A stretch of 64,000 nt of DNA from Ignavibacteria bacterium RIFOXYB12_FULL_35_14. GTDB lineage: Bacteria; Bacteroidota; Ignavibacteria; Ignavibacteriales; Ignavibacteriaceae. The notes under the pieces are model-generated. The model was not told the origin of the DNA. It saw only the letters and a list, made by a program, of their open reading frames with translations, and made no database searches. Below are positions 8,138 through 55,615 of the stretch, one piece after another. Where the stretch lies: contig MHAR01000021.1 in assembly GCA_001803045.1 (NCBI GenBank), positions 1-64,000 of the forward strand, written 5' to 3'. The stretch's first letter is position 1. Each line of letters opens with the position of its first letter. Position numbers and translations under genes: made by a program.

Positions 8138-8158
8138 ATTGCCTCCTAAAATAATAAA

Positions 8159-8340: not shown

Positions 8341-8413
8341 CGTTCACCCATACTGTTAACCCACTTGCAATAAGTTACTCTCGACAGTTAAAATTGAGAG
8401 ATATGGATGAACG
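8341..8413 (-). ncRNA. structured element S2 (three-way junction)
   Basis: A 12-bp closing stem (8341-8352 with 8402-8413, CGTTCACCCATA with TATGGATGAACG) surrounds hairpins 8378-8382/8396-8400 and 8363-8366/8372-8375. It is a diverged copy of S1. Differences in the closing stem keep pairing (for example CCC/GGA against CTC/AAA, read with G-U pairs). It includes the last codons and the stop of the 8356-8784 gene. Confidence 0.55.
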
Positions 8414-8784: not shown

Positions 8785-8919
8785 TTTATCCCTTATTAAC
8801 CTTGGTACTGTTTAGAGATTTTTGAATATGAGATAAAAAAGTCTGAGTAGCAGTATCATAGTTTGACCAAATAACATTTTAAACTATTTTTAATTTTCAC
8901 AATAATATCTATTAACATT

Positions 8920-9192: not shown

Positions 9193-9208
9193 TAGTAAAA
9201 ACATCTTT

Positions 9209-11011
9209 CTATCGCCCGGCTCCATCATCCCACGCCTTTTCAAGATGAGGTATGAGTTCGCGAGCAATAAGGTCCTTATCAACAAAGCCATAAACGTTTA
9301 CAACAATACTTTTTGAGCCATTGTTATTAGTAACGTAAGAATCATTTCTAATTGAAGGAATACTAACTCCCGAAGCTGAAATTCCACCTCCACCGCTAGT
9401 TCCCGGCTGCATTGAAGCAATGCGCGCTATGTTTGATAAACCAAATGCAGTAGCAGCGGCAGCGGCGGCAATTGCGAGCCCGGGTCCTACAATAGGAATA
9501 CCAACCATCGATTTATACGCTGCTATTGCAGCATTATATGTATCTATTCCAGCTTGACCCATAGCAAATGCCTTGTACCATCCAAACATGGTGCGATTGG
9601 TTTCTTTAGAAGTATTCGCAAAATTCAACATAGCACCAGACATATTACCAAACATATTCACTTGAGCAGCTTCACGTATTGCATAATCCGCTAATTCCGC
9701 TCCCGTTAATTCAGCAGATAGTGCAATTTGCTGATCATGCAATCTTTGAGCTTCGGTTAATGCAACTGATGACATCCCGAATTCTCCACTCGGAACGCCG
9801 GGACCTTGCTCTAATCCCTTTGCTTGATTGAGTTGTGTGATTGTAAATAACTGGGTAAGCAGATAATCGTTTATGGTTGATAGTGCACCGGGAATTCTAT
9901 CATACTTGGAGTGGTACTCTTCCACTTGCGCAATAAGCCGCATTAGTTTTTCTTGCTGCGGATCGAGTCCAAAGGTATTGATATCAAGGCGGAGTTTTTG
10001 GCCTATTGAATCCCATTGATCACTTAACCGTTTAGCTTCTTCTACCTGCTTTTTTAACAATGCTAATTGCTCATCAGTCAATGGAGATTCCGGCGGCTTC
10101 ATTAAGTTTTCTAAATACTTGCGCTCTGCTTTTAGTTCATCTACAACTCCCTTAAATTGTGCACCAGCCTGTACATGCATCTTCCTGTAAAAATGTTGAA
10201 CATTACCAATTTGCAGCATCCAACCATCTATTGCCGCGCCTAGTATACCTTGTCCGGTCGTATCCCTTAAAGCTCTATCAACTCCAGTAATTTGTTCAAG
10301 CAGCAGCGTAAGACTGCTCACTCCTTGATCTACAGAAGCAGTTAAGTCTTTCCCTATTTCAGTTTGTAATTCCTCAAATGCCACTTTCAATTGTGCGGTT
10401 TTATCCACAGTTGTAAGCAAGCTTCTATCCATCCCGGAGAGTTCCTTATCAACAATGTTTCCTACTGCAGTCATAAAGTCCCCGGTTTTCTTTACCTCAG
10501 CACTGAGCACCTTAGCACTAATACCAAGGTTATCAAGTATTTTGGGAGATTCCCGGGCAGTTCCGGTAACAAATGAATTAAGCATATAATCAATGCTTTC
10601 ACCGGTTTGCTGTGCGCGTACTTTTGCAAACTCCAATCCCTTTATAAAAATATCCATTGGTATTTTGAAATTGGAAGATTTAATTGCCAACTGCATAAGT
10701 TCTAATTCTGATATTGTTCCTTTAGTAACATCCCTCATTCGTTCGATAAGCAAATTGGATTGAGGTAAAAACTTAAACGTATTATTCACGCCTTGCCAAG
10801 CACCGGCAAGATTAACAGCTTCATGAGTAAAATTAGCAACTGCTGTAACTGAGAATGCACCAATGATGGTATATTTTAAGCTATGGAATAATGGGTTAAC
10901 ATTGGAGGTAATTGTTCTTTGCATATCAATCAATTTTTTATCTACACCGTTGATAGCAGTTACCGCGCCTTTATTATCTCCATCAATTTCAATAGTGACC
11001 TTATTTGCCAT
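9209..11011 (-). CDS. phage tail tape measure protein
   Basis: 600 residues with the features of siphovirus-type tape measure proteins: an N-terminal beta-rich start (VTIEIDGDNKGAVTAINGVDKKL), a membrane-like helix near 45-70, a TP901-like region (RESPKILDNLGISA, MTAVGNIVDKE), long helices, and a C-terminal Ala/Gly-rich segment (AIAAYKSMVGIPIVGPGLA) followed by the GLSNIARIASMQPG motif common at the end of this family. It starts on a TAATG overlap with the preceding gene, which implies translational coupling. At 600 residues it would specify a short tail. Confidence 0.8.
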   Translation of the reverse strand: MANKVTIEIDGDNKGAVTAINGVDKKLIDMQRTITSNVNPLFHSLKYTIIGAFSVTAVANFTHEAVNLAGAWQGVNNTFKFLPQSNLLIERMRDVTKGTISELELMQLAIKSSNFKIPMDIFIKGLEFAKVRAQQTGESIDYMLNSFVTGTARESPKILDNLGISAKVLSAEVKKTGDFMTAVGNIVDKELSGMDRSLLTTVDKTAQLKVAFEELQTEIGKDLTASVDQGVSSLTLLLEQITGVDRALRDTTGQGILGAAIDGWMLQIGNVQHFYRKMHVQAGAQFKGVVDELKAERKYLENLMKPPESPLTDEQLALLKKQVEEAKRLSDQWDSIGQKLRLDINTFGLDPQQEKLMRLIAQVEEYHSKYDRIPGALSTINDYLLTQLFTITQLNQAKGLEQGPGVPSGEFGMSSVALTEAQRLHDQQIALSAELTGAELADYAIREAAQVNMFGNMSGAMLNFANTSKETNRTMFGWYKAFAMGQAGIDTYNAAIAAYKSMVGIPIVGPGLAIAAAAAATAFGLSNIARIASMQPGTSGGGGISASGVSIPSIRNDSYVTNNNGSKSIVVNVYGFVDKDLIARELIPHLEKAWDDGAGR

Positions 11012-11427
11012 TATATTGCTTCTTTCTGCAATGGTTCTTTATCGAAATCCCTTTTTGCTGACATTATCTTTGCTAACAAATCATAGAAATTTGAATTTAC
11101 CTTATCGTTAAATTTTTCTCTCATTTCATCAATGCTTTTTTCTGGATTCTTTTCACATAGATCGACTATGTATAAAAAAGCGATGCTTTGAATCAATGCT
11201 TGATTACGGATGATTGCTTGCAGTAATTTTTGCCCCATAGTAGAATCACTGCTAAGATATCCAAGACTGTCTTTCATTAAATCATTAACCGATTCGAGGC
11301 TAAAGCTTTCTACATTCAGTTTTGGAAAGATCATACTCTCTAGAAATGCTTTGATAGAAAGTGTATTATCAACTATCAAATCTGCAATTTCATTATTATT
11401 AAATTGTCCTAAATCTACTTTTTCCAT
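11011..11427 (-). CDS. unknown protein before the tape measure gene (tail-chaperone position)
   Basis: 138 residues, acidic and helical, with no recognised domain. In siphoviruses the gene directly before the tape measure usually encodes a tail assembly chaperone, and the TAATG overlap with the tape measure gene fits co-translation. No slippery frameshift signal was identified. The function is inferred from position alone. Confidence 0.55.
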   Translation of the reverse strand: MEKVDLGQFNNNEIADLIVDNTLSIKAFLESMIFPKLNVESFSLESVNDLMKDSLGYLSSDSTMGQKLLQAIIRNQALIQSIAFLYIVDLCEKNPEKSIDEMREKFNDKVNSNFYDLLAKIMSAKRDFDKEPLQKEAI

Positions 11428-11449
11428 AATTATAAAAACCTTTCAATTT

Positions 11450-11528
11450 AATTTGTGCCCGGCTGCAGAAAGACCGGAGCAGTCTTTGCAGCTCGAACAC
11501 GCGGAATCTTTCCGCGACTAACAAAATT
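11450..11528 (-). ncRNA. structured element S5 between capsid and tail genes
   Basis: Two strong hairpins lie side by side: 11462-11474 with 11482-11492 (GCTGCAGAAAGAC against GTCTTTGCAGC with two unpaired bases on the long side) and 11500-11506 with 11510-11516 (CGCGGAA/TTCCGCG). A weaker outer pairing TTTGT/ACAAA (11452-11456 with 11521-11525) closes a three-way junction. It sits in the leader of the 11011-11427 gene, 23 nt upstream of its start. The shape resembles S1-S4, but the sequence is different. Confidence 0.45.
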
Positions 11529-11688
11529 ACTTGCATGAACTATTTATGATGGATTTCCAACTAATACCATAAAAACTATTTCCACCTTTCATCTTATATC
11601 TTAAAAAAAGGAGAAGGGAGGAAAAAGCAACAAACATTTATTTCCTTTCCTTCTCCCCAACCAAGGAGTACTCGATGAACAGAAAAAT

Positions 11689-12729
11689 TCAAGTTACACT
11701 AGTTGCTAATGAAATCGTTTTTGGCGTGCGTACAGTAAATCCATAGAAGCCTGTAGCTACGATTGTTACTGCAAAATCATCCTTGTATGGATTGATAAAA
11801 ATTTCAATGCCGGGTCCAAACTGCTCAATCAGTACAGTACTAAATCCACCGTGGAAAATATCACCCTCATCAAACTGATTCGATGAAATCACCGGGTAAT
11901 CGTTCATTGAATTATTTTCAATTAAAAACTTATCTGATGCAGCAATCGGCCTTTTCTTTAACAACTTTTTTGTGTTAGGATGCATAAGATAAAACTTTGG
12001 ATCGTTCGCATTATACAGCTCTATTAGGTTTTCAAGATCTACTGCTTTATCCCTATCGAAATTTGCACCGCTAATTCCTTGTACGTTCACGTTATTTTTT
12101 AATCCGTATGGCTCCGGGTCCACACCAGAACCATAGAAAATCATCCTATCCAGTTTTCTGAATATCGCGTTCTTAATTCTCTGAATAAAAAGATAATCGA
12201 CTATTGGAATAGTAGGTTCTTTGATATTAAAATGATCATAGAATCTCTTACTTACCTTTAGCGCTGCTTTATAAATTATGGGTTTAATATCATATCCTTC
12301 ATCATAAGTGGGCGGCACCGGAGATCCTTCACTACCATCTGCAACTACAACTGCCTGTACCTCAGTATCTTCTCGTGGAATTACACCGGGTCTAACTCCG
12401 ACTTCAATAATTTTTATCCCGACTTTTTCAAAAACCGGAGGATTAGATAAAAATTCCGCTAATTCAAGTAATGTGCGAAAATCCAACAGCTTTGATAATC
12501 CCGCCACGGTTGTTAAAGCTGTTAGGTCACGGACACCAACAAAACCGAGGCTATCTACAATTTCCTTTTCCATGGCGCGTGTTAAAATAAAATTGAGTGG
12601 ATTAGATCTTTCGTTCCTCGGGAATTCTTTGTTTTGATTATCGATATAGAACTTTTCATAATCGGGAATTCCCTTACGGTTTACCATTGAACCGATTAAA
12701 CCCATGGGTGAGAAATGTGGATTCTTCAT
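11689..12729 (-). CDS. HK97-type phage major capsid protein
   Basis: 346 residues that fit the HK97-fold major capsid family. There is a helical N-terminal stretch, then a beta-rich region (KIIEVGVRPGVIPREDTEVQAVVV), the P-domain (DIKPIIYKAALKVSKRFYD), the spine-helix region with IKNAIFRKLDRMIFYGSG, and the C-terminal domain with FYLMHPNTKKLLKK, DYPVISSNQFDEGDIFHGGF and a final FGPGIEIFINPYK...VRTPKTISLAT segment, which matches the usual order in this family. No scaffold or protease gene is recognised beside it. The 120-aa gene lies 9 nt upstream in the same direction. Confidence 0.85.
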   Translation of the reverse strand: MKNPHFSPMGLIGSMVNRKGIPDYEKFYIDNQNKEFPRNERSNPLNFILTRAMEKEIVDSLGFVGVRDLTALTTVAGLSKLLDFRTLLELAEFLSNPPVFEKVGIKIIEVGVRPGVIPREDTEVQAVVVADGSEGSPVPPTYDEGYDIKPIIYKAALKVSKRFYDHFNIKEPTIPIVDYLFIQRIKNAIFRKLDRMIFYGSGVDPEPYGLKNNVNVQGISGANFDRDKAVDLENLIELYNANDPKFYLMHPNTKKLLKKRPIAASDKFLIENNSMNDYPVISSNQFDEGDIFHGGFSTVLIEQFGPGIEIFINPYKDDFAVTIVATGFYGFTVRTPKTISLATSVT

Positions 12730-12738
12730 TTTAAGCTC

Positions 12739-13101
12739 CTAACTTTTATTGATGATGTAATATTTATTTTCAGATTCAAATATTTTTATGATAAAAAGAT
12801 TTAAGGTTTTTACTTGTTGATTCTTTTTATAAAAAACGAGGTGACGAAACCACTCATAAGCAGTATCATCTTTAGCAATCACCCCTCCAACACTTTCAGC
12901 AGCCGGTTCGATACTTATGTGTAAATAATTATCAATTAAATCGTAGCATAAGGTTTCTACGCGTTCAAGTATAAAGGGAAAGCACAATTCCAGTACGCGT
13001 TTTGTTTGTTGCTCAATAAATACATCCTTACCATTTAAATCTTGAAAAGCGGATTTTGATTTTAAAGAAGCAACATCCTGAAGTAAATCTTCGTATTCCA
13101 T
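12739..13101 (-). CDS. unknown 120-aa protein upstream of the capsid gene
   Basis: A mixed alpha/beta protein with a motif-like stretch SIEPAAESVGGVIAKDDTAYEW and a C-terminal beta region. It lies 9 nt before the capsid gene and 8 nt after the next gene upstream, so it belongs to the structural operon. No family is recognised. By position it may be a head-completion or decoration protein. Confidence 0.55.
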   Translation of the reverse strand: MEYEDLLQDVASLKSKSAFQDLNGKDVFIEQQTKRVLELCFPFILERVETLCYDLIDNYLHISIEPAAESVGGVIAKDDTAYEWFRHLVFYKKNQQVKTLNLFIIKIFESENKYYIINKS

Positions 13102-13109
13102 ACTTATAA

Positions 13110-13496
13110 TTATTTTACGTCAAAAGAATTTTCAATAAGGAAATAACTTGGATAAGCCGCATGCTGCATTTTGTATTTTATAAATATTAAGTTTAACGTT
13201 CCATGAATAGGAAACGACAGAAGGTTTTCTTTTGTAAGTAGTGTACCCTTCTCATCCGTTACCGTTATTGTGTGTTCTACTGTGGAATGCGATATACCCA
13301 CATGGACCAAATCCAGAATTTTTTCTTGAGCTATCAGCGCATTTATTTTGTAGATAACCTCCGGAGTTTGATTCAACTTTGATTGAATATCTTTAGTTGT
13401 ATGGAAGTTTTTAACAAGTGAGAAATCTGTTTTTTTCGAAAGTTCATTTATTTCCTCAACTGCTTTTTCGTACAAGCTCTTAGATTCATTTTTCAT
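13110..13496 (-). CDS. structural-operon protein, paralogue 2 of a tandem pair
   Basis: 128 residues. The C-terminal 70 residues align with the protein from 13509-13883: both have ITVTDEKG/VTVTDEND, a LT-K/D-E/D-x-L/I-x-S turn, a hydrophobic strand (LNLIFIKYK against LDILLIRIA) and the ending YFLIENSF/TYLIENKF. The pair is best explained by tandem duplication. The family is not recognised. The 12-nt gap to the upstream copy and the position before the capsid gene suggest a virion protein. Confidence 0.6.
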   Translation of the reverse strand: MKNESKSLYEKAVEEINELSKKTDFSLVKNFHTTKDIQSKLNQTPEVIYKINALIAQEKILDLVHVGISHSTVEHTITVTDEKGTLLTKENLLSFPIHGTLNLIFIKYKMQHAAYPSYFLIENSFDVK

Positions 13497-13508
13497 TTTA
13501 TGTTTCCT

Positions 13509-13883
13509 TTAAAATTTATTTTCGATTAAGTATGTTTTCTGCTGTAGTGTTTTAGAATGAGCAATCCGTATTAAAAGGATATCTAACTTTTCTTGACTGA
13601 GGGAAGGTATATCATCTGTAAATATTGTTTCATCATTCTCATCTGTTACAGTCACGCTGCTTTTAGTTTTATTCACCGGCACTAATTTTATTCTGAGCAT
13701 ACTATTTTCACCAAAAGGCAGATACTTTAAGCCGTTACAAAATGTAGGATATTCAGATAGCTGTTTCTGTAAAGGATTGGTTGTATAAACATCCATGAAT
13801 TTCTCAAAGGATTTTTTCCTCTGTAGTTCAATGATTTGATTTAATCCTTTGCTTAGCAGATATTTGTTGTAAGTAGCACTCAT
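13509..13883 (-). CDS. structural-operon protein, paralogue 1 of a tandem pair
   Basis: 124 residues; see the shared VTVTDE...YLIEN pattern with the gene just downstream (13110-13496). The N-terminal 50 residues are helical and basic. The start codon (13881-13883) lies at the base of a perfect 14-bp hairpin (13881-13894/13902-13915), and no good ribosome-binding site is free, so translation may be controlled. Function unknown. Confidence 0.6.
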   Translation of the reverse strand: MSATYNKYLLSKGLNQIIELQRKKSFEKFMDVYTTNPLQKQLSEYPTFCNGLKYLPFGENSMLRIKLVPVNKTKSSVTVTDENDETIFTDDIPSLSQEKLDILLIRIAHSKTLQQKTYLIENKF

Positions 13884-13915
13884 ATTATTCTCAGTTAATT
13901 TCTGAGAGTAATATG
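13881..13915 (-). promoter_or_regulatory. hairpin covering a start codon
   Basis: CATATTATTCTCAG at 13881-13894 pairs with CTGAGAGTAATATG at 13902-13915 around a 7-nt loop, 14 bp with one G-T pair. On the minus-strand transcript the ATG of the 13509-13883 gene is the last part of the 3' arm. In the mRNA this would hide the initiation codon, so translation could depend on unfolding. Confidence 0.5.
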
Positions 13916-13975
13916 CAATTGAGGAAGGAAGGATTCAAAAGGAGAGCACGTGCCTGCCCCTATTTAATTCTATTT

Positions 13976-15286
13976 TTAATCCTTTTTATCGCTCCTTTCT
14001 GATAATCTATCAAGAATGTTCAAATGAACTGATTTCTTAATGGCAATTTTTAATTTTTCATTTACCTCAATCATCTTAGGTTTATTGTCACCACTAAGTC
14101 TCACAGCCGGAATACTTTTTTCATAATGCTCAATAGCTTCATCATAATATTTAGAATGTTTAAATTTTTCAAATTCATCTGTTAACTTGTAATTATCATC
14201 TTCTTTGCATAAAGAAATATATCTTTTAATTGAACGCTGTCTTTCTATTTCCACTTCGCGATTCCAATTTTCTTCGGATATAGCTTCTTTAAATTCTTTC
14301 AACTTTTTCTGTAAAATGAATATGTTTTTATCTGGGCTTTTACCATATACACTCATGAATGCTGTATTTATACTCTTGTTTATTTCCTTGCTTTTATCAC
14401 CTCCGCCCATCTGTGATGCTCTAACTTCCAATTTTAAATATCGGACCGCTTTGTTAAACAAATCCGTATTTCTCTCGATAATCTTTATTTTAAATAAAGG
14501 CACTAACACCAAATCGAGGTACTTTAATTTATCATTCAAATAAGATTTATACTCATTGGAGTTTTCAAATTCACCATACCCATCATACAATTTAAATTTA
14601 TACTTTTTGTTTTCATCAATATCAATTAAGCTTAATTCATCCTTTATATATCTACGAAAAAGGGGGTCCTCTCTATACTCTCTATCTATTCTTTTCTTAA
14701 AATCATCGCTGAATGGTTTACATGAGGTTCTTTTATCATTCTTTACTTTGTATACCATAATATCTTCAATTTCAAAATAGCAGTCCATATTAAGATTTGG
14801 ATCAAATTCTATACTCATGTTATCCCATACTTCTTCATAATATTCATTCACACCGATATCCTTAAATATTTTGATCAATTCGTCTTTAGATTTTAACCCT
14901 AAACTTTTAGCTGTTTTTTCTGCAAGTGCCTTTTTTGCTTTACCTTTAAGGTTCCGGAACCTTAAAGCAAACTCAATATATTTTTCGTTAAAAGCTTGTT
15001 GTTGTAAAAACGGGAATATCCTTTTGCTCGATTCCCCAAATCGTTTGTTTACAAGTTTCCTTTTTTGTTGTTCGTCTTTAATATTTTCGAACTTACTAGC
15101 GACTTCATAAAATACAGATTCGATCACCTCTATATTTACAGATCTCATTAAATCATGAAGAGCACCCAAATATATATCAGATAAGATATTATGAATCTCA
15201 GCATAGTATTCTTCGACGGAAGAAGGAACTACCGTCACCCTGCCAATTACTTGCCCCAAGTTTATAATTGAAGTTTTCTTTTCCAT
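13976..15286 (-). CDS. unknown 436-aa protein of Island A
   Basis: I start it at ATG 15286 (MEKKTSII) because the longer frame (GTG at 15361) begins inside structured element S3. The product is highly charged, rich in Lys and Glu, and mostly helical, with no signal peptide or membrane segment. Notable stretches are FEIEDIMVYKVKNDKRTSC, LKLEVRASQMGGGDKSKEINKS and a helical C-terminus. No family is recognised. Its place upstream of the structural genes would suit a virion, portal-like or regulatory role, but I see no portal motif. Confidence 0.6.
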   Translation of the reverse strand: MEKKTSIINLGQVIGRVTVVPSSVEEYYAEIHNILSDIYLGALHDLMRSVNIEVIESVFYEVASKFENIKDEQQKRKLVNKRFGESSKRIFPFLQQQAFNEKYIEFALRFRNLKGKAKKALAEKTAKSLGLKSKDELIKIFKDIGVNEYYEEVWDNMSIEFDPNLNMDCYFEIEDIMVYKVKNDKRTSCKPFSDDFKKRIDREYREDPLFRRYIKDELSLIDIDENKKYKFKLYDGYGEFENSNEYKSYLNDKLKYLDLVLVPLFKIKIIERNTDLFNKAVRYLKLEVRASQMGGGDKSKEINKSINTAFMSVYGKSPDKNIFILQKKLKEFKEAISEENWNREVEIERQRSIKRYISLCKEDDNYKLTDEFEKFKHSKYYDEAIEHYEKSIPAVRLSGDNKPKMIEVNEKLKIAIKKSVHLNILDRLSERSDKKD

Positions 15287-15308
15287 AAGTACACTCGAAA
15301 ATAAAAAA

Positions 15309-15373
15309 ATCCGTTTACACGCTTGCGAACCGAGACTAATCGGCTGCCAGTTTCCCGGCACGTATAAACGGAT
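15309..15373 (-). ncRNA. structured element S3 (three-way junction)
   Basis: A 13-bp closing stem (15309-15321 with 15361-15373, ATCCGTTTACACG with CGTATAAACGGAT) encloses hairpins 15330-15333/15340-15343 (CCGA/TCGG) and 15345-15348/15357-15360 (TGCC/GGCA). On the minus strand the stem is followed by ATTTTTTTATTTT, so termination or attenuation is possible. It is 22 nt upstream of the start of the 13976-15286 gene. Confidence 0.6.
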
Positions 15374-15420
15374 TGAAATTGTTCATGGTTTTAGTCTTTA
15401 ATCGCAAATTGATCATTTAA

Positions 15421-15609
15421 TCACTTCTTATCGTTAATTCTTTTTAGCAATAATAAGAGCTTGCAAAGACTCAATTGATCTCTTTCTTCCAGCAATTCTT
15501 TTCTTTTTTTTAGAAGCGCTGCTATTCGTTCCCTCTGATAAATTATTATTTTATCCAGTGATTCGCTTTCCTTCTTCTCGGTACAAGCTTTAGGTGAGTT
15601 ATTAACCAT
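15421..15609 (-). CDS. small coiled-coil protein (62 aa)
   Basis: The product carries one long charged helix with heptad-like leucines (RERIAALLKKRKELLEERDQL, then SLCKLLLLLKRI). A ribosome-binding site AAGGAG lies 7-12 nt before the ATG. No family is recognised. It sits between structured elements S3 and S4. Confidence 0.5.
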   Translation of the reverse strand: MVNNSPKACTEKKESESLDKIIIYQRERIAALLKKRKELLEERDQLSLCKLLLLLKRINDKK

Positions 15610-15639
15610 GATGTGACTCCTTGTATTTGACTCATAGTC

Positions 15640-15708
15640 AAGCTCTGAGATCAGTCACGTCACAAAGTAACGTTCGGGACCTTGCGGTTTTCCGAAATCT
15701 CAGAGCTT
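15640..15708 (-). ncRNA. structured element S4 (three-way junction)
   Basis: A perfect 12-bp stem (15640-15651 with 15697-15708, AAGCTCTGAGAT with ATCTCAGAGCTT) encloses ACGT/ACGT (15657-15660 with 15670-15673) and CGG/CCG (15685-15687 with 15692-15694). A further perfect hairpin, TTGACT/AGTCAA around CAT, follows directly toward the 62-aa gene. It occupies that gene's leader, 31 nt from the start. Confidence 0.55.
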
Positions 15709-15822
15709 AACTATAAATTTTTTTTCTGTTATTTAAAACAAAAACACCTTTGCTTTCGGGAAAGGTTTTAACCGCTCTGTGTTTGACTGTTCAAACTTAT
15801 TAATTATTTCTTAGAAAGTCAA

Positions 15823-16071
15823 TTACTTCCTTTTTACCAGTGAATTTTCAGTAACAAATTCCTTAATGCTTTGATCAGTTACAAACATTCTACCTTCTCT
15901 GAAAGTAACTTTCAATTTACCTGTATCAATAAACTCTTTTTTCAAATCATTTCGTGAAATATTTAATCTGAATGAAGCTTGCGCAACTGTATAGAGTTCC
16001 CTTTCGCAGCTTAACCTCATGAAATGGTTCACTCTTTTTACAAATATTTGCTGTAATTTTATTTCGTTCAT
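15823..16071 (-). CDS. excisionase-like winged HTH protein
   Basis: 82 residues. The middle part (RELYTVAQASFRLNISRNDLKKEFIDTGKLKVTFREGRMFVTDQSIKEFV) has the order of MerR/excisionase-type helix-turn-helix proteins: helix, turn, recognition helix, wing with a basic hairpin, then a short helix. It ends 19 nt before integrase 2 begins in the direction of transcription upstream of it, and probably acts as recombination directionality factor or regulator of integrase 2. Confidence 0.65.
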   Translation of the reverse strand: MNEIKLQQIFVKRVNHFMRLSCERELYTVAQASFRLNISRNDLKKEFIDTGKLKVTFREGRMFVTDQSIKEFVTENSLVKRK

Positions 16072-16090
16072 GGCACCCTCAATTATTTTA

Positions 16091-17182
16091 CTATATTTGA
16101 TTTTGTGGATAAGTTTTAAGGAACCTCAATTTATTGATGTTTGATTTCCTTACTCGCGGTTCTAGCTTTTTCACTGCATCAATAAGATTATCGCTTTTAA
16201 TATGTGCATAGATTTGGGTTGTAGTGATATCCTGATGGCCCAATAGTTCTTTAACAACATATAACGAAACTCCGTTCTGAACTAAGCAAGATGCAAAGGA
16301 ATGACGCAAAGTATGGAAGTGAATACGATCATCAAGCTTTGCCTTCCTAACTGCCTTCTTAAATGATTTTGATACATAGTCCGTATTCAATAAAACACCT
16401 TTCACCCGGGTAAAAATGTAGTCACCGGCATTTAAGATTTTGGATTTAGGATATCTTGAGCTAAGGATTTCATACAAAGATTCATTTATAGGGATGATTC
16501 TTTCCTTTTTATTCTTTGTTGTGAACGTATTTGTGTTTTCAACTTTAATAAATCGATTCTTAAAATCCACCGCATCCCATCTTAAATTTAGCAGCTCTCC
16601 TAGTCTTAACCCGGAAAAATACCCGGTCAAATAAATATCTCTTAATAATTTTATTCTAGTGACCTTAATAATTTTTTTTAAGTGTCTGTACTCAATGAAA
16701 ACCGGGATATGTTTAGGCAATCTAGGAAGTTTGAATTTACGAAACGGATTTTCAGAAATATAATCCCACTGTTTTGCTTTCTCAAATGCTGCTTTCAAGG
16801 TCCGGTAATGCAGAGCTGCAGAGTACTTTGATCTTTCATAGATATCATTGATAAATTTTTCTGCCATTGCCTGATTAAATTGGCACAATGGAATGTTACC
16901 GGAAATATCGATCAATATTTTGAAAGCATAGCTTATCGCGTTTTTATAACTCTTAGATCTGATGGATGAGACAACATTCAAATACTCTATTTCAAATTCC
17001 TTCAATGATTTTGAATGGAGTGCTGTTTCGATGGGATTTTCTATGGAAGATTTGAAGTCAGTAAGAAATATCAATGCTTCAGATTTTAATTTCTTACCAG
17101 TGCTTTTAGTAGTGAATTTTCCTTTAGCATTTTTAAACAAGATTTGCCAAAAGGGAGATTTAGCAGATTTAGTTAGATACAA
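16091..17182 (-). CDS. tyrosine recombinase (integrase 2), likely integrase of Island A
   Basis: 363 residues with an N-terminal Arm-type DNA-binding region (FWQILFKNAKGKFTTKSTGK, 11-30), a core-binding domain (KYSAALHYRTLKAAF) and all catalytic residues: R193 in GLRLGELLNLRW, Lys near 225, H290-x-x-R293, H316 in LLGHQD and Y325. It lies about 100 bp from the distal tRNA 3'-end copy (17279), as expected for the integrase that produced it. Blocks shared with integrase 1 show common ancestry. Confidence 0.93.
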   Translation of the reverse strand: MYLTKSAKSPFWQILFKNAKGKFTTKSTGKKLKSEALIFLTDFKSSIENPIETALHSKSLKEFEIEYLNVVSSIRSKSYKNAISYAFKILIDISGNIPLCQFNQAMAEKFINDIYERSKYSAALHYRTLKAAFEKAKQWDYISENPFRKFKLPRLPKHIPVFIEYRHLKKIIKVTRIKLLRDIYLTGYFSGLRLGELLNLRWDAVDFKNRFIKVENTNTFTTKNKKERIIPINESLYEILSSRYPKSKILNAGDYIFTRVKGVLLNTDYVSKSFKKAVRKAKLDDRIHFHTLRHSFASCLVQNGVSLYVVKELLGHQDITTTQIYAHIKSDNLIDAVKKLEPRVRKSNINKLRFLKTYPQNQI

Positions 17183-47876: not shown

Positions 47877-50153
47877 TTGTCTAATAACCCATCAACTCGC
47901 ACCAATTGTTTGTTTGCCACCATTTTATTGCTTCTTTTATTTCTATCGGGCGAAATAATTGCCCAGAGTAAAACCGGCACAATTTCCGGTGAAGTTAGAG
48001 ATGCTGTCACAAAGCAGCCGCTTCCAGGGGCAAATATCATGATCGAGGGAACAAAGATTGGTTCAGCATGCGATGAGAGCGGTTATTTCGCAATTAAGAA
48101 TGTTGCTCCCGGTAGATATACTATTAGAGCATCAATGATAGGTTACTTGTCTTCAGTAATAACTGAGTTAAACATTAACCCAAATAGAAATCATTCGATT
48201 AATTTTGAACTTAATTCCGCTGCTATGGAAATCGAAGAAGTTAATGTTACGGCAGATTATTTTGCTAAACCGGAGGATAATCCGGTAAGTTTTAGGACAA
48301 TTTCTCCTGATGAAATTAGAAGATCTCCCGGTTCGGCAGAGGATATTTTTAGAGTGATGCAGTCATTGCCGGGAGTTGCAACAGCGGGAGCAAAAAGTGC
48401 ACAGCTTATTGTTAGAGGAGGAAGCTCGGATGAAAATCTTACTCTGCTTGATGGTATTGAGGTATATAATCCAATTCATTTTGCTCGTACCGGTGAATCA
48501 ATGGGTGTAATAAGTATAGTCAATCCCGCACTTCTTCAAAAAGTTGATTTCCTAACTGGCGGTTTTCCGGTAAAGTATGGCGATAAAATGTCATCTGTTT
48601 TTGATATGAGTTTACGCGATGGCAATAAGGAAGTCTTTAATACAGACGCCAATTTAAACATTGCCGGATTTGGAGTGATGTTAGATGGACCACTATTTGA
48701 AAATAGTAACATGATTCTTTCATTGCGACGAGGTTTTTTTGATTTGATCACATCAACTCTTAAGCGTCCGGTTGCTCCGAGTTATTATGATGCAGTTGGA
48801 AAAATTACTTATGATTTAGACAATAAAAATAAAATCAGTCTTGTAGGATTTTATTATATCGATCAGATTGAAAGAACCGGAACAGAAAAAGAAGAGACTT
48901 CCAATTGGAACAGATATGATTATTTGACGCGTGATGATTACGGCGCCGCATTTGGTATCAATTGGCGGTCACTCATTTCCGATAATGCTTTTACATTAAC
49001 AACACTTTCATATACAAGCAATGGCTGGAATACTCTTCAAGGCACTGAAACGGAACCGTCTTTAATGGGAGAAGATATACGCGAGAATGAATTGAGTTTG
49101 AAATCTGAATTAAATTATAAATTATCTACAAAATTTAATTTGAAGATAGGCGGACAACTCAAATCCATTAACTCAGATAACGAATCATGGACTCCGGCAG
49201 ATACAACGCGAAAGGGCACGATTATTCCAGCCAATACAATTTTATATCAACCAGATGCTACAACAAAAGCAGCTTTATTTATGCAATCTTCATTTCGCAT
49301 TTTTGATCCATTGATTGTTACTGCCGGTCTGCGTTATGATTATTTTGCACTTACATCAGAAAATAATTTCAGTCCCCGCATTTCCCTTTCATATAATATT
49401 ACTGACAAAACAATTTTTAATCTTGCCTATGGAAAATATTATCAATCGCCGGCAAGTTATCAAATAGCGCCGGATGAACGTAATCTATTTTTAAAAAGCA
49501 GTTATGCAATTCATTATATAGCTGGAATTGAACAACGTTTGAATCATGATACCAAAGCAAGCATTGAAATCTATCATAAAGAACTTTCAAATCTGTTTGT
49601 TGATCCGGATAGTTCAAATCTTCTTCTGAATACCGGCAGCGGTTATGCGCAAGGAATTGAATTTGCAATACAGAAGAAATTTACTGAAGGCTTTGTAGGC
49701 AGCGCTTCATATTCGTATTCAATATCTAAAAGAAGGGATTATGAATCGTTAGCGCTTTACGATTTTGAGCATGACCGACCACATATTCTAAATTTACTAT
49801 TTGGACTCGAAGTAGGCGCCGGCTGGCAGATTGGAGCCAAGTTTCAATATGCTTCAGGGAATCCTTACACGCCGGTAACCGGTGTTACTGAAATAGATAA
49901 TATTTTTTATGTAATTGACGGCGAAAAAAATTCTGCACGTTATCCCGATTATCACAAATTAGACATTCGTATTGACAAACAATTCATTTTTGAATCGTGG
50001 TCGTTTTCGCTTTATCTAGATTTATGGAATGTGTATAACAGAGATAACGTAAGTTCCTACTCTTTCAAAGCTGACACGAATGGCGAATTGACTTCCACGC
50101 CAAGATATGATTTGGGAATTACGCCTATTCTGGGTTTTACCGCTAAATTTTAA
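47877..50153 (+). CDS. TonB-dependent receptor with N-terminal carboxypeptidase-like domain
   Basis: 758 residues. I accept the TTG start at 47877 because it gives a signal peptide (FATILLLLLFLSGEIIAQ). Residues about 33-115 are a CarboxypepD_reg-like domain (GTISGEVRDAVTKQPLPGAN). The plug domain follows (SPGSAEDIFRVMQSLPGVATAG, then LIVRGGSSDENLTLLDGIEVYN, given in blocks) and then the barrel, ending LGITPILGFTAKF. There is no STN domain. The substrate is unknown. It is 209 bp after the porin gene, so a separate promoter is likely. Confidence 0.92.
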   Translation: MSNNPSTRTNCLFATILLLLLFLSGEIIAQSKTGTISGEVRDAVTKQPLPGANIMIEGTKIGSACDESGYFAIKNVAPGRYTIRASMIGYLSSVITELNINPNRNHSINFELNSAAMEIEEVNVTADYFAKPEDNPVSFRTISPDEIRRSPGSAEDIFRVMQSLPGVATAGAKSAQLIVRGGSSDENLTLLDGIEVYNPIHFARTGESMGVISIVNPALLQKVDFLTGGFPVKYGDKMSSVFDMSLRDGNKEVFNTDANLNIAGFGVMLDGPLFENSNMILSLRRGFFDLITSTLKRPVAPSYYDAVGKITYDLDNKNKISLVGFYYIDQIERTGTEKEETSNWNRYDYLTRDDYGAAFGINWRSLISDNAFTLTTLSYTSNGWNTLQGTETEPSLMGEDIRENELSLKSELNYKLSTKFNLKIGGQLKSINSDNESWTPADTTRKGTIIPANTILYQPDATTKAALFMQSSFRIFDPLIVTAGLRYDYFALTSENNFSPRISLSYNITDKTIFNLAYGKYYQSPASYQIAPDERNLFLKSSYAIHYIAGIEQRLNHDTKASIEIYHKELSNLFVDPDSSNLLLNTGSGYAQGIEFAIQKKFTEGFVGSASYSYSISKRRDYESLALYDFEHDRPHILNLLFGLEVGAGWQIGAKFQYASGNPYTPVTGVTEIDNIFYVIDGEKNSARYPDYHKLDIRIDKQFIFESWSFSLYLDLWNVYNRDNVSSYSFKADTNGELTSTPRYDLGITPILGFTAKF

Positions 50154-50237: not shown

Positions 50238-51869
50238 TTATTCAGATGGCAACAAATTTTTTGTCCTTAATTTTGACGGCATAAAGATGCCAATCACACC
50301 TTTCAAACCAACACTCATAACAATATTGTAGAAGAAAGCTAAAAATGCGAGAAGAAGGAGTGAGCCGGAAATTGCTGCCAATATCATATATATATTGAAT
50401 TCGCCGTTAAGGTAGATTGAACGGCGCAACATACCTCTTAAGCCGGCCATTCCCATAAAAGCACCCATTCCGATACCGCCGAGAAGATGTGCCCAGAAAT
50501 GGAAGCTCGCTAATCTTTCGCTATAGAGTTTTGCTCCGTTAGTTAGAATTGGAAAGAGAAAATATATTGCCGAATATAATGTCATTGTCAATCCTATTAA
50601 TATTGCGACATGAACGTGAGGACCAACAATCCATTGAGTGTTATGTAGAATTCTATTCAATCCTAAATCTGCCTGCATAATACCGGCAGGAACAGCTAAA
50701 GCAAATCCGAGTAATCCTCCAAGTAAAAATTTTAGCGGATGACTCATTTTTAACGGTCGTGCACTCCAAAGCGTTGCAAGAGTAATAAAGAAAGCTAGAC
50801 CTTGAGTAATAAGCTCAAATGCTGTAACCATTTCTCCGGATAAAATTTTTAAGATACCAGGTTGAGCTTGATCCGACATTAAATGATGCGACCAAACTGT
50901 CCAGCTTACAACCATTTCAACAAATAAAGCTGCACGAGCCCAGTTTTCCATAAATAACTTTTTACCCGTGATTAATGTGGCAAGTAAATACCATGTGCCG
51001 GCAACAAATATTAAAACGAGCCCATCTGCAATTAAATCAAGTCCCCACCAGAAAATATTTTTATATAATAAAGCATCAATAGCCGAATGTTTAAGACTTA
51101 CTCCAAACAATTCCGCAACCATATAAATTAAGATCAGAACGCCGGCGAATAAAATAACAACAGCATTAAAGGCTGTGTCAACCGTTCCTCTTGCAATTGC
51201 AGCAACCGGAAGAGAAACCAAATGTTCTTTTTTCTTTTTTGAAAATAGATTTGTTAAGCCGGTTAGACCAAGTGCGGATTTTATTAATGCGCCGCCCGGT
51301 TGTTTTTCCCAACCATCGGGTGTGTATATAATTGTTTTAAAAATATTGATAACGAAAAATGCTGTCCCTACCATCACTAGTGCAATTCCAACTATAAAGA
51401 ATGTTCCACCTAAAACACTAAACTGTGAAAAATCTGCCGGCAAAGGCCAATAAAGTGTGTAGAGCGGAGAATAGTGAGATACAAAACCCGCAAACCAAAA
51501 TACGAACGTACCAATTGTAATTAACCATAAAGTCCAATTTCCTAATTTGATACTCCACAATGGTTTTTTCATTAAGAACGGAACAAGGAAAAGAAAGGCC
51601 CCAAAGACAATGGAATATGTAGAACCAAAAATTCCAACAAGCGGATGCGCTGTCATTATAGCAAAAAACTGTTTCGGTTCTACACCCAAAGCAAGATTAG
51701 GATTAACTTCAAATAATCTCATCAACATTCCTTCAATAACAACAACGCCATAATAGATCAAGCCAACTACAACAAACCGCAATGTTAGTTTTTGCATTGG
51801 CGTTAGGGAATTCGGTTTGAACAAACCTTTTTCGCCATTTGTTAATATTTGTATAAAGCTCATTTTCAA
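50238..51869 (-). CDS. haem-copper-superfamily subunit I, likely a nitric oxide reductase
   Basis: 543 residues and about 14 membrane helices. Haem ligands are present: H75 (TAHP, helix II) and H418/H420 (PHVH, helix X). The metal-site pair H328-H329 (WSHHL) is present. In helix VI, oxidases have H-P-x-V-Y; here the region reads WWGLDLIAD, with D278 at the His position and D282 at the place of the cross-linked Tyr. Loss of the Tyr excludes normal O2 reduction, and acidic metal ligands suggest a non-haem Fe site as in NO reductases. With a CuA-less subunit II and NO-linked neighbours, NO reduction is the best reading. Exact NOR clade not assigned. Confidence 0.85.
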   Translation of the reverse strand: MKMSFIQILTNGEKGLFKPNSLTPMQKLTLRFVVVGLIYYGVVVIEGMLMRLFEVNPNLALGVEPKQFFAIMTAHPLVGIFGSTYSIVFGAFLFLVPFLMKKPLWSIKLGNWTLWLITIGTFVFWFAGFVSHYSPLYTLYWPLPADFSQFSVLGGTFFIVGIALVMVGTAFFVINIFKTIIYTPDGWEKQPGGALIKSALGLTGLTNLFSKKKKEHLVSLPVAAIARGTVDTAFNAVVILFAGVLILIYMVAELFGVSLKHSAIDALLYKNIFWWGLDLIADGLVLIFVAGTWYLLATLITGKKLFMENWARAALFVEMVVSWTVWSHHLMSDQAQPGILKILSGEMVTAFELITQGLAFFITLATLWSARPLKMSHPLKFLLGGLLGFALAVPAGIMQADLGLNRILHNTQWIVGPHVHVAILIGLTMTLYSAIYFLFPILTNGAKLYSERLASFHFWAHLLGGIGMGAFMGMAGLRGMLRRSIYLNGEFNIYMILAAISGSLLLLAFLAFFYNIVMSVGLKGVIGIFMPSKLRTKNLLPSE

Positions 51870-51893
51870 ATTCCTTATAAGTTGTAAAATTTT

Positions 51894-52442
51894 TTATTCA
51901 ACTACTTCGACAGCATCTCTCAAGATCATATTTATTCCTTTAGGTCCCGAATATTCAGTTGATCGAATGGAATAAACAGCCAGACGATCAAACTGCCAAA
52001 GAATATCATTAATATGACCGGGAATTACTTGCATCTGGAATACCATTGAGTTGTCGCTTCTAAATATTCCAAAGCCGTACGTTAAATCTTTTGATTCCAC
52101 ATTAAATCGAACTATCTCATTTTTTCTTATTATGAGCTTAGAGGTAGGGAGTCGAAATTCGTGGTTCTTCATAGTTATATGAAATTCTTTATCGGCTTTG
52201 ATCTCTGCACGATTTAAGTCCATCGGCTTCCATGGAATAGTTTCATGGGTTACAATATGAAGAGAGACCCCAATAACAACAAGTAAACCGACAAATGAAT
52301 AAAATATTGCCGGTTTAACTACCTTGCCGGAACCGTTTCTTGTTACCTTGTAAGAAAACCAACCCATCAAAGCCATTATCGCAAGGACATAAAAGGTGTA
52401 GGCAACTGTTTGTCCAGTTAATACAATGTTTGAATCGATCAT
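51894..52442 (-). CDS. haem-copper subunit II without a CuA site
   Basis: 182 residues: two N-terminal membrane helices (about 11-31 and 44-64) and a cupredoxin domain. The CuA motif C-A-E-Y-C-G-x-x-H-x-x-M reads S161-T-E-Y-S165-G-P-K-G169-I-N-M172: both Cys are Ser, the His is Gly, only Met remains. The first CuA His (normally D-V-x-H-x-F) is Tyr122 in DLTYGF. It therefore cannot take electrons through CuA from cytochrome c; quinol or another donor is implied. It ends 24 nt before subunit I. Confidence 0.88.
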   Translation of the reverse strand: MIDSNIVLTGQTVAYTFYVLAIMALMGWFSYKVTRNGSGKVVKPAIFYSFVGLLVVIGVSLHIVTHETIPWKPMDLNRAEIKADKEFHITMKNHEFRLPTSKLIIRKNEIVRFNVESKDLTYGFGIFRSDNSMVFQMQVIPGHINDILWQFDRLAVYSIRSTEYSGPKGINMILRDAVEVVE

Positions 52443-52529
52443 AACTCCGCCTTTTTGTTATTGAATTTATTTGATTAATACCCTTGAGTATTTTTAGTGT
52501 TCAAATTTTTTTATTAATCATTCTAAGAA

Positions 52530-52994
52530 TTAAAATTTTTCTCCCTTTGATTCTCTAATATGACTTCCAACAGATCTGATTCTTCCCCACATAGAAATGA
52601 AGAAAATAATTATGCCTATTACTTGTCCGAATGCAGATATTGGAAGTAAGAATTTTAGAAGCTCATTAGGCAAAACAAAAGCAGAAATAACTTGAGAAAA
52701 AAAACGGATAAGCGTTGAAACAGTAATTATAAAATATGTAACAAGAATAAGATCGGGTTTATAAAGTTTGTCGTCTTTTTCGGGGCGTGGAAAAAACCAT
52801 AACGCAACACCCATAATCATCATCATAATAGAACCTACAAGAATTATATGTTTATGAGCGGAAACCATATCGGGGTGAGGCCATAAATAAAAATAATTAC
52901 GTGCAATTAATAGATATAGACCGGTAATAATTCCTATTAGGAGAAATATTATACTGGTTTTCACGAAATATCTCACGGTTGAAAACATAAGCAA
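52530..52994 (-). CDS. small His-containing membrane protein of the NOR operon
   Basis: 154 residues with four membrane helices. WPHPDMVSAHKHIILVGSIM places three His at the end of one helix and the start of the next, similar to haem-ligand patterns in the N-terminal part of haem-copper subunits and related proteins. It precedes subunit II in the operon (87-nt gap). It may be an extra haem-b subunit or an assembly factor. Confidence 0.7.
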   Translation of the reverse strand: MLMFSTVRYFVKTSIIFLLIGIITGLYLLIARNYFYLWPHPDMVSAHKHIILVGSIMMMIMGVALWFFPRPEKDDKLYKPDLILVTYFIITVSTLIRFFSQVISAFVLPNELLKFLLPISAFGQVIGIIIFFISMWGRIRSVGSHIRESKGEKF

Positions 52995-53029
52995 TCCTTT
53001 TTATGGTTTACTTACATACATTTTCCCTC

Positions 53030-53329
53030 TCATTCCGTATCAATAACTACTTCATAGAATTTAGGAGAGAGTGGTCCTTCCAACAGAGTTTTTAATCTGT
53101 TAAAAGCTTCTTGACGTTCTTTACTGGTATGCATGGTCATAAAAGTTTTTTCACTTTCATGTTCAACTAAAGTTACAAATCCGCCTTTTCCTTTGGTACC
53201 TTTTAGAAGTCGCCTTGAGATAAATCCGTTAAAATTTTTGTAAATGCTATTTGACCATTTGAACCACTCAAGAAATTCGGCTTCTTTGCCGGTTTTTATC
53301 GGAGGAAATTCGATTGTGTTGATAAACAT
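53030..53329 (-). CDS. ABM-fold (antibiotic biosynthesis monooxygenase-like) protein
   Basis: I use ATG 53329 (MFINTIEFPPIK), which has GAGGAG 9-14 nt upstream; the frame is open further but without such a signal. About 99 residues with the ferredoxin-like ABM fold: IKTGKEAEFLEWFKWSNSIYK, FNGFISRRLLKGTKG and FVTLVEHESEKTFMTMHTS. Relatives include haem-degrading and quinol monooxygenases. Its location between the hemerythrin and NOR genes suggests a role with haem or NO stress. Confidence 0.7.
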   Translation of the reverse strand: MFINTIEFPPIKTGKEAEFLEWFKWSNSIYKNFNGFISRRLLKGTKGKGGFVTLVEHESEKTFMTMHTSKERQEAFNRLKTLLEGPLSPKFYEVVIDTE

Positions 53330-53412
53330 TAATTCATCTCCTCTTTTTTGTATAAATAAACGCAAACTCTCTTAGCAAGAAGTTCAACAGTTTGCGTGAA
53401 CCTAAAAAGTAA

Positions 53413-54474
53413 TTAATGCAATTTTAGCTTTAAGTATTCACCCACTAAAATTGCAGCAGGATACATAACTTCTTCTTCTGTCTTCGCATGAAGTTTTAGA
53501 TTCTCGGCAAAATCAACATATTCCATTCTTTTAAGCTTCTTAGCAATATCTGCAAATTTATCAAGAGCTTGAACAATTTGTTTGTGCTCTTCCAGCATGT
53601 GAGGTAAATCTGCTTTTAATTTATCAGTCATAGATAGAACTGATTTCATATCTTCAATTATATGACCTTTCGCCAAATCAGTTAATAATCCGAGCGGAGG
53701 GAGTGCGATCTCTTCCTCTTTAACAAAGTGACCATGCAAAATCTTTGCAACCTGCTTTGCTGCTACACTAATTTCGCCTTCTTCTTTAGTGGCTTTAGCA
53801 AGAACCGCATGAAGTGCTTCATGCTCAATTTTTAATGACCTTGGGATTGATATTTCCATGCTAATTACTCCTATTTCATGTTTTTCTTCTTGGTGTTTTA
53901 TTGCAGATTCATAATTTTCTTCTGCGAAATGAAGAAAAGTTACATACGCTTTTACATATTTTCTGCCAGCTTCAACATTATTTGGTTCATAATTTTTTGT
54001 TTCGATTACTTCACTAAATAATTTCTTGATCTCTTGCGTTGAAAGATTAGCTTTGGTAAACACGTTATTGATTGGATCGAAAGAATTTTTTTCGATCGAA
54101 AGATCAGCCGCCGGTATAACGGGACCTAGATCTCTTCCGGCGGGTTTCAAACCGTTGTATGGTTCACCTTCACCGGCTCTATGAAGCCGAACTAAAGTTT
54201 CGAAGAAATACATATCTGCCATCTCTTGAACTTCTTTGCTGATATTTCTTACAGCCAGCGTTTTTTGAAAAGCTTCTTTGATTGCATTTTCATCATTCTT
54301 ACCAACCCAGATAAGAACGAGGTTTACATTTTTTGTTTCAAGCGCTTGCCTTGCTGCTTTAACGACCGGACCATCAAGTCCATCGCAGTGGGCAAACGAT
54401 TCTGTAGAAGCGAGTAAAAAGAAAACTACTGTAACAGCAAGCAGTTTTAGCGGTTTTGAAATTGTGTGTGTCAT
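53413..54474 (-). CDS. secreted DUF6448-hemerythrin fusion protein
   Basis: 353 residues with a signal peptide (LLAVTVVFFLLASTESFAHC). Residues about 29-200 match DUF6448: AHCDGLDGPVVKAARQAL, YFFETLVRLHRAGEGEPYNG and GLKPAGRDLGP. Residues about 210-350 form a hemerythrin-like HHE bundle with His/Glu ligands in KIEHEALHAVL, LHGHFVKEEE, LEEHKQIV and LKLHAKTEEEVMYP. Hemerythrin domains bind O2 or NO at a diiron site. Export to the periplasm beside an NO reductase suggests NO binding, sensing or scavenging outside the cytoplasm. It is the first gene after the FNR-like box. Confidence 0.82.
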   Translation of the reverse strand: MTHTISKPLKLLAVTVVFFLLASTESFAHCDGLDGPVVKAARQALETKNVNLVLIWVGKNDENAIKEAFQKTLAVRNISKEVQEMADMYFFETLVRLHRAGEGEPYNGLKPAGRDLGPVIPAADLSIEKNSFDPINNVFTKANLSTQEIKKLFSEVIETKNYEPNNVEAGRKYVKAYVTFLHFAEENYESAIKHQEEKHEIGVISMEISIPRSLKIEHEALHAVLAKATKEEGEISVAAKQVAKILHGHFVKEEEIALPPLGLLTDLAKGHIIEDMKSVLSMTDKLKADLPHMLEEHKQIVQALDKFADIAKKLKRMEYVDFAENLKLHAKTEEEVMYPAAILVGEYLKLKLH

Positions 54475-54534
54475 AAAATTTTTCCTTTAATGTTTTACCT
54501 TGCAAATATAACAACGGAAGAGAAAACATCCTTT

Positions 54535-54544
54535 GACTTAAGTC
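54535..54544. promoter_or_regulatory. Crp/Fnr-type palindrome before the NOR operon
   Basis: GACTTAAGTC is a perfect 10-bp palindrome inside TTTGACTTAAGTCGGA. It resembles the FNR/DNR consensus TTGAT-N4-ATCAA (here TTGAC-N4-GTCGG). It lies 60-70 bp upstream of the hemerythrin start and just downstream of the crp/fnr-like gene, fitting activation of the operon by that protein. Confidence 0.5.
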
Positions 54545-54592
54545 GGATTTGTCATTATTTAAAGAGCAGAAAATGAATTAATAGATCAAAAA

Positions 54593-55300
54593 TTACCTGG
54601 CTAAAGCTTTTAATTTTTTGAGATCAAGAATAAAAATTGATTTACCGGAAACGCGAATTATTTTTTCATCTTGTAGTTTCTTGAGAAGTCTAGAAAGTGT
54701 ATCCGTAATTGTCCCGATATAAGCTGCAATATTTTTTTTAGATATAGTGATTCTTAGAAAAGGTTCCGGAAGTTTGTCTGTGCCGGCTTTATTTATTTCG
54801 TCAAGGAGATATCCGGCAAATCGATTCATCACTTCTTTGGAGGAAAGTTCTTCAACTTTTTGAGTGAGGTGTCGCATTTTTTTAGCAAAACCAACAAGCA
54901 TATTAAAGCAAATTGTGGAATTACTTTTAATTAAAGTTATGAATTCTTCTTTAGGAATAAATATTAGACTGGCATCGTTAAGAGCTTGGGCATTCACAGG
55001 ATATTTTGCACCTTCAAATAGAGGAACATCTCCGAAGGATTCATAAGGTTTTAGCAAATGCAGAATTGATTCTTTCCCATCAACTGATATTTTAAAAATT
55101 TTTATAGAACCTTCAATAATTATAAAGAATCCTTTATAATAGTCCCCTTCTAAAAATATTGTGTCGTTCTTTTGGAAATCTTGAATCTTGCAGATTGCTG
55201 ATATTTTATTTAATTGTTCATCAAATAAATCTGAAAATATTGGAAGACATTTAAGTATGTCGTGAATGATTTGTCGATTGTTTTTACTAATTGTAATCAT
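54593..55300 (-). CDS. Crp/Fnr-family regulator (DNR-like)
   Basis: 235 residues: cyclic-nucleotide-binding-like beta barrel (about 15-130, LFDEQLNKISAICKIQDFQK, GDYYKGFFIIIEGSIKIFK), a dimer helix, and a C-terminal winged helix (ISKKNIAAYIGTITDTLSRLLKKL). The N-terminal Cys cluster of FNR is absent (only scattered Cys), so it is not an Fe-S O2 sensor of that type; DNR-type proteins that sense NO through haem fit better. It is the first gene upstream of the NOR cluster in the same direction. Confidence 0.85.
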   Translation of the reverse strand: MITISKNNRQIIHDILKCLPIFSDLFDEQLNKISAICKIQDFQKNDTIFLEGDYYKGFFIIIEGSIKIFKISVDGKESILHLLKPYESFGDVPLFEGAKYPVNAQALNDASLIFIPKEEFITLIKSNSTICFNMLVGFAKKMRHLTQKVEELSSKEVMNRFAGYLLDEINKAGTDKLPEPFLRITISKKNIAAYIGTITDTLSRLLKKLQDEKIIRVSGKSIFILDLKKLKALAR

Positions 55301-55541: not shown

Positions 55542-55615
55542 GCGCCCATAGCTCAACTGGATAGAGCATCAGACTTCGGATCTGAGGGTTGAGGGTTCAA
55601 ATCCTTCTGGGCGTA
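55542..55615 (+). tRNA. tRNA-Arg (anticodon TCG)
   Basis: 74-nt cloverleaf: acceptor GCGCCCA/TGGGCGT with one G-T pair, anticodon stem TCAGA/TCTGA with loop CTTCGGA (anticodon TCG, reads CGA), T arm GAGGG/CCTTC-type around TTCAAAT. CCA is not encoded. No island is inserted here. A terminator follows. Confidence 0.95.

What the first reader, a model, noticed from the sequence alone, without database searches (positions are those of the whole stretch)
50238..55300. Non-canonical nitric oxide reductase operon with a CuA-less subunit II and an Asp-substituted active site
Seen: subunit I keeps His for haems (H75, H418, H420) and the H328-H329 pair, but the H-x-x-x-Y of helix VI is D278-x-x-x-D282. 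Subunit II has S161, S165 and G169 where CuA needs Cys, Cys and His, and Tyr122 for the other His. Known: O2-reducing haem-copper enzymes need the cross-linked Tyr; NO reductases lack it and have acidic residues near a non-haem metal. Inference: with a DNR-like regulator, a periplasmic hemerythrin, an ABM protein and a small His-rich membrane protein, this is a separate NO reductase lineage with an uncommon two-His/one-Asp metal site and a donor other than CuA.
Basis: partly seen in the sequence, partly recalled or inferred. Interest (0 to 1): 0.9.

Follow-up and report, generated by a model that had tools for sequence, protein, structure and literature searches.

The report
gNOR-type nitric oxide reductase gene cluster
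This is a two-subunit membrane enzyme of the oxidase family that most likely turns nitric oxide into nitrous oxide with quinol as electron donor; it matches an already proposed but never purified family (gNOR), here shown to be spread among Bacteroidota-group bacteria and to sit beside an unstudied secreted protein with a possible metal-binding tip.

Summary
Subunit I (50238-51869, -) is a haem-copper subunit I with every haem His and the His-His pair kept. An ungapped helix-VI match puts Asp278 and Asp282 exactly where oxidases have His and Tyr. Subunit II is a cupredoxin with Tyr/Ser/Ser/Gly in place of the four cysteine and histidine ligands of CuA. All these residues are invariant in 86-87 relatives. 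The published key assigns Asp at the Tyr position to gNOR (Hemp & Gennis 2008, as tabulated in PMC8756737), a quinol-oxidising NOR ('norGH', PMC8906906). So the 'separate lineage' has most likely been named already; I could not fetch a canonical Sulfurimonas or Persephonella gNOR to prove it. NO chemistry is supported by context: a three-Cys Rrf2 (NsrR/IscR-class) regulator lies upstream in 49 of 86 loci, the genome has NarG and NosZ but no other NOR, and the accessory genes recur in the NosZ-NarG island and in other NosZ loci. Some details differ: the hemerythrin is a leaderless separate gene in most relatives, the ABM match is below cut-off, and the small protein is COX1/NnrS-like rather than His-rich. 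Most novel lead: DUF6448, whose mature N-terminus is always His-Cys-Asp, like the NiSOD nickel hook, without detectable homology.

The parts
50238..51869 (-). Subunit I (catalytic subunit; likely true start at Met3, 51863)
   Evidence: PF00115 1.6e-56; fold matches haem-copper subunit I, best Z 30, 456-463 residues aligned at about 3.5 A
51024..51077 (-). Helix VI motif D265-ALLYKNIFWWGLDLIAD-282: Asp278 at the His-ligand position, Asp282 at the Tyr position
   Evidence: invariant 87/87
50883..50888 (-). His328-His329 metal ligands
51894..52442 (-). Subunit II, cupredoxin domain without CuA ligands
   Evidence: TIGR02866 CoxB 1.7e-6; alignment to CuA domains
51927..51962 (-). Former CuA loop S161-T-E-Y-S165-G-P-K-G169-I-N-M172
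52530..52994 (-). Small 4-TM COX1/NnrS-like protein, accessory
   Evidence: PF00115 1.3e-7; its paralogue L129:3702-4178 also hits NnrS 5.7e-5
53030..53329 (-). ABM-like protein, accessory (conserved start MF[IV]NTIEFP)
   Evidence: PF03992 2.2e-4, below cut-off
53889..54474 (-). Signal peptide + DUF6448 domain; mature N-terminus His-Cys-Asp at 54390
   Evidence: PF20046 2.8e-56
53413..53888 (-). Hemerythrin HHE domain fused behind DUF6448
   Evidence: PF01814 1e-5; separate gene in L052, L034, L158, L170
54593..55300 (-). Crp/Fnr-family regulator (paralogue beside the NosZ island)
   Evidence: PF00027 5e-23, PF13545 9e-14; L129:206-922

Best explanation
A gNOR-type nitric oxide reductase. Subunit II keeps the fold but not the copper of a CuA domain, so electrons probably enter from membrane quinol. 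They pass to a low-spin haem held by His75 and His420, then to a high-spin haem (His418) facing a non-haem metal, probably iron, held by His328, His329 and Asp278, with Asp282 near by. There two NO become N2O and water. In this Ignavibacteria-group genome it is the only recognisable NOR and would feed N2O to NosZ or remove NO. The DUF6448-hemerythrin, small COX1-like and Crp/Fnr genes are a regulated NO-stress module that joined it. Shown: residues, fold, conservation, neighbourhood, patchy spread. Inferred: NO as substrate, quinol donor, metal identity.
For: Asp at the HxxxY Tyr position = gNOR in the published key (PMC8756737 Table A4). CuA ligands absent and replaced by invariant residues, consistent with 'quinone-oxidizing' gNOR norGH. 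Separate from A-type, B-type and eNOR clades with 100/100 support. Rrf2 regulator with three invariant Cys directly upstream in 49/86 loci, 2-129 bp, same strand; an Rrf2 gene also follows the eNOR genes of Thermus. The own genome has NosZ and NarG and no other NOR among its PF00115 matches. DUF6448 and gNOR co-occur: 5 of 8 gNOR genomes against 19 of 288 others, Fisher 1.1e-4 (not corrected for kinship); DUF6448 lies beside nosZ in L129, L161 and L165.
Against: No canonical gNOR sequence could be reached, so membership rests on diagnostic features. Whether canonical gNORs also have Asp for the helix-VI His is not verified here. No nirK or nirS in the genome, so its own NO source is unclear. 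gNOR genomes are not enriched in NosZ (3 of 8 over cut-off, against 98 of 296). No activity data exist.
Confidence: 0.74

Rival explanations
1. A separate, still unnamed NOR family: same reaction, but distinct from canonical gNOR because the helix-VI His ligand is also replaced by Asp.
For: The published key names only the Tyr-position residue; the clade is tight (75-96% identical) and isolated, with no intermediate matches in four group-wide profile searches.
Against: Both published diagnostic features of gNOR that could be tested are met; nothing tested sets it apart.
Confidence: 0.15
2. An oxygen reductase with an unusual active site.
For: Same fold and ligand set apart from helix VI; members live in groups with aerobes.
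Against: The Tyr that O2 reductases need is absent in 87/87; the genome already has aa3-like and cbb3-like oxidases; context is N-oxide metabolism.
Confidence: 0.05
3. A haem-copper enzyme of NO chemistry other than reduction to N2O (dismutation, or an NO-binding sensor or sink).
For: Asp-rich metal site; hemerythrin and NnrS-like neighbours point to NO handling in general.
Against: All redox haem ligands conserved; NosZ in the same genome suits an N2O product.
Confidence: 0.06

Closest known systems
gNOR (norGH; Hemp & Gennis 2008, Sievert et al. 2008, Murali et al. 2024 PNAS)
   Same: Asp in place of the active-site Tyr, two subunits, cupredoxin subunit II, described as quinone-oxidising
   Different: Published hosts are Sulfurimonas, Sulfurovum, Persephonella and Methylomirabilis; here Ignavibacteria, Bacteroidia, Acidobacteriota and others. 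The helix-VI His-to-Asp change could not be compared.
eNOR (Rhodothermus, Thermus, Chloroflexi)
   Same: haem-copper subunit I with cupredoxin subunit II; Rrf2 gene beside it in Thermus
   Different: HxxxQ, CuA ligands kept in the Thermus subunit II, separate clade
cNOR / qNOR
   Same: acidic residues at the non-haem metal (general knowledge)
   Different: they have HxxxE, and NorC or a fused quinol domain; here DxxxD and a cupredoxin subunit
cytochrome bo3 quinol oxidase
   Same: cupredoxin subunit II without CuA, quinol donor (general knowledge)
   Different: bo3 keeps His and Tyr in helix VI and reduces O2

Membership tests
gNOR | Asp at the active-site Tyr position of helix VI | tested here: met
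   D282, 87/87; register fixed by ungapped match
gNOR | two subunits, subunit II with cupredoxin fold | tested here: met
   CoxB model hit, CuA-domain alignment, pair in 82-86 of 86 loci
gNOR | CuA lost, quinol donor | tested here: inconclusive
   CuA ligands absent in 86/86; quinol binding not testable
gNOR | clusters with Sulfurimonas/Persephonella/Methylomirabilis gNOR | not tested
gNOR | NO reduction to N2O | not testable with these tools
   needs assay
O2-reducing haem-copper oxidases | His and cross-linkable Tyr in helix VI | tested here: not met
   Asp and Asp in 87/87
eNOR | Gln at the Tyr position | tested here: not met
   Asp; eNOR references from Thermus, Defluviimonas, Thermomicrobium have HxxxQ and form another clade
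cNOR/qNOR | HxxxE in helix VI and NorC or fused cytochrome/quinol domain | tested here: not met
   DxxxD; partner is a cupredoxin
sNOR | Asn at the Tyr position | tested here: not met
   Asp; key in PMC8756737
NiSOD (for DUF6448) | nickel hook HCxxPCGxY at the mature N-terminus and NiSOD fold | tested here: inconclusive
   HCD at the mature N-terminus in 35/35 but no second Cys; no Pfam or PDB sequence match; NiSOD appears only at Z 4.2, over another part

The most novel reading that the evidence does not exclude
The cluster shows that gNOR-type NO reductases in the Bacteroidota group work with a new kind of secreted metalloprotein, DUF6448, whose mature N-terminal His-Cys-Asp binds a metal by an amino-terminal hook (as in NiSOD, but from an unrelated fold) and handles NO, superoxide or metal delivery for NOR and NosZ.
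Probability: 0.25. Interest if true: 0.7.

Novelty: new member of a known kind. Interest (0 to 1): 0.42.

Why it matters
gNOR has been proposed from sequence only. A tight family found here in 394 candidate stretches of sequenced genomes, all checked members with the same DxxxD site and a dead CuA site, is good material to test whether two His and an Asp can hold the non-haem metal of an NO reductase. Such genes are easily annotated as cytochrome c oxidase and missed in N2O budgets, notably in genomes that otherwise look like NosZ-only. The linked DUF6448 family gives an unexplored metalloprotein candidate of denitrification.

Tried and rejected
Fetching canonical gNOR: plasmid tblastn gave oxidases only; the viral scan gave nothing; plasmid loci of Persephonella and Sulfuricurvum were not accepted as centres for a genome search. 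The Murali 2024 paper is not held. Joining the family to B-type by tree was left open: the long cbb3 outgroup branch meets it and the fork has 83/72 support. Homology of DUF6448 to NiSOD was not supported by sequence or fold; no solved structure stood out for it (best Z 6, over 66 residues). nirK and nirS were looked for in the genome and not found.

Full report
Observation. The six genes lie as described on the minus strand. Subunit I is a member of PF00115. The nearest solved relatives by single-sequence search are B-type ba3 oxidases, while the AlphaFold2 model (mean pLDDT 75, pTM 0.80) matches haem-copper subunits I of several kinds. The helix-VI register was tested in several ways. Pairwise HMMER with Thermus ba3 puts D278 on His233 and D282 on Tyr237. 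Profile alignment with an A-type set and with a B-type/eNOR set also puts D278 on the His. An 18-residue ungapped comparison of DALLYKNIFWWGLDLIAD with the helix-VI motifs of 16 A-type, B-type and eNOR sequences (for example DPVMFQHIFWFFGHPEVY) is best of all offsets at residue 265 and collapses one residue either side. A multiple alignment that shifted the motif by one is therefore judged wrong.

Conservation. Across 87 subunit I sequences (86 loci plus the window, a few of them duplicates of one genome) H75, D278, D282, H328, H329, H418 and H420 never vary. Across 86 subunit II sequences Y122, S161, E163, S165 and G169 never vary. The CuA site is thus not decaying; its residues are fixed, which suggests a new role for that surface (inference).

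Spread. A survey of the phylum found the gene in 8 of 296 genomes, each in another genus. A scan of GTDB genomes gave 394 relatives, of which the best 80 lie in Bacteroidota, Ignavibacteriota, Acidobacteriota, Chlorobiota and a bin labelled Spirochaetes. The members looked at are about 75-96% identical to the window protein, and group-wide profile searches found either close members or nothing in between. This is a tight, patchy family, best explained by recent horizontal spread (inference).

What it is. The key of active-site residues in PMC8756737 (after Hemp and Gennis 2008) gives Tyr for oxygen reductases, Glu for cNOR and qNOR, Asn for sNOR, Gln for eNOR and Asp for gNOR. PMC8906906 and PMC6094997 list gNOR in Methylomirabilis; the former names it norGH and describes it as quinone-oxidising and non-electrogenic. 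PMC11388526 says gNOR is proposed, not biochemically characterised. The present enzyme has the Asp, the cupredoxin subunit II and no CuA. I file it as gNOR with the reservation that no canonical gNOR sequence was available; my recollection that gNORs also carry Asp instead of one His ligand could not be checked. In a tree with A-type, B-type and eNOR references (eNOR recognised by HxxxQ in Thermus, Defluviimonas and Thermomicrobium) it forms its own clade, with uncertain attachment.

Context. In 49 of 86 loci the gene directly upstream of subunit II, on the same strand and 2-129 bp away, encodes an Rrf2-family protein with three invariant cysteines, the pattern of iron-sulphur Rrf2 sensors such as NsrR and IscR (general knowledge; the NCBIfam NsrR model hits below cut-off). 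In Ignavibacteria-like members the regulator is instead a Crp/Fnr protein followed by DUF6448, hemerythrin, ABM and small COX1-like genes. The genome holds a second island with Crp/Fnr, a DUF2249/DUF1858 protein, a 421-aa haem-copper-like membrane protein, a small COX1/NnrS-like protein, DUF6448, Sec-dependent NosZ with nosD and ABC genes, and NarG. The accessory module thus occurs twice, and elsewhere without gNOR (L158, L162, L174) or next to nosZ (L161, L165). In 296 genomes DUF6448 and gNOR co-occur more than expected (5/8 against 19/288, p 1.1e-4 without correction for kinship). nirK and nirS were not found, so NO may come from other cells or from side reactions of nitrite reduction (inference).

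DUF6448. All 35 sequences have a signal peptide whose cleavage motif (Ala 32, Ser 3 at position -1) is followed at once by His-Cys-Asp, then G7-P8; H1, C2, D3, R68, H70, R71 and E74 are invariant in the 31-row alignment. The model is very confident (pLDDT 97, pTM 0.89), helical, and without a clear solved match. The N-terminus recalls the nickel hook of NiSOD (HCDLPCGVY; from memory), but the second cysteine is missing and no homology was found, so this is a lead, not a claim.

Verdict. Observation confirmed; interpretation partly supported: an NO reductase of the proposed gNOR family rather than a new lineage.

Noticed in passing
window 53911-54390 (-); L129:4506-5018; L157-L176: DUF6448 proteins all begin, right after the signal peptide, with His-Cys-Asp (35/35), resembling the NiSOD nickel hook without its second Cys; confident helical model with no clear PDB match.
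   Followed up: partly
L129 (G000:C77) 206-16711: The same genome has a NosZ-NarG island with paralogues of the window's Crp/Fnr, DUF6448 and small COX1-like genes, plus a 421-aa haem-copper-like membrane protein of unknown role.
   Followed up: partly
L162:8008-11979, L174:7477-11319: Conserved module Crp/Fnr - DUF2249/DUF1858 - 421-aa HCO-like - DUF59 - small COX1/NnrS-like - ferredoxin - DUF6448 present without gNOR.
   Followed up: no
G152:C54 and C59 (L015, L016): Subunit I is split over two contig ends in one genome; probably an assembly break.
   Followed up: no
G300:C48 and C65 (L108, L112): One acidobacterial genome carries two gNOR-type copies.
   Followed up: no
window 55542-55615 (+): A tRNA gene lies just upstream of the cluster, with a TonB-type receptor gene on the other side (47877-50153); a possible insertion site.
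   Followed up: no
L137:3368-5525 (Thermus thermophilus plasmid pTF28b): A plasmid eNOR (HxxxQ), annotated as b(o/a)3 oxidase, is followed by an Rrf2 regulator.
   Followed up: partly
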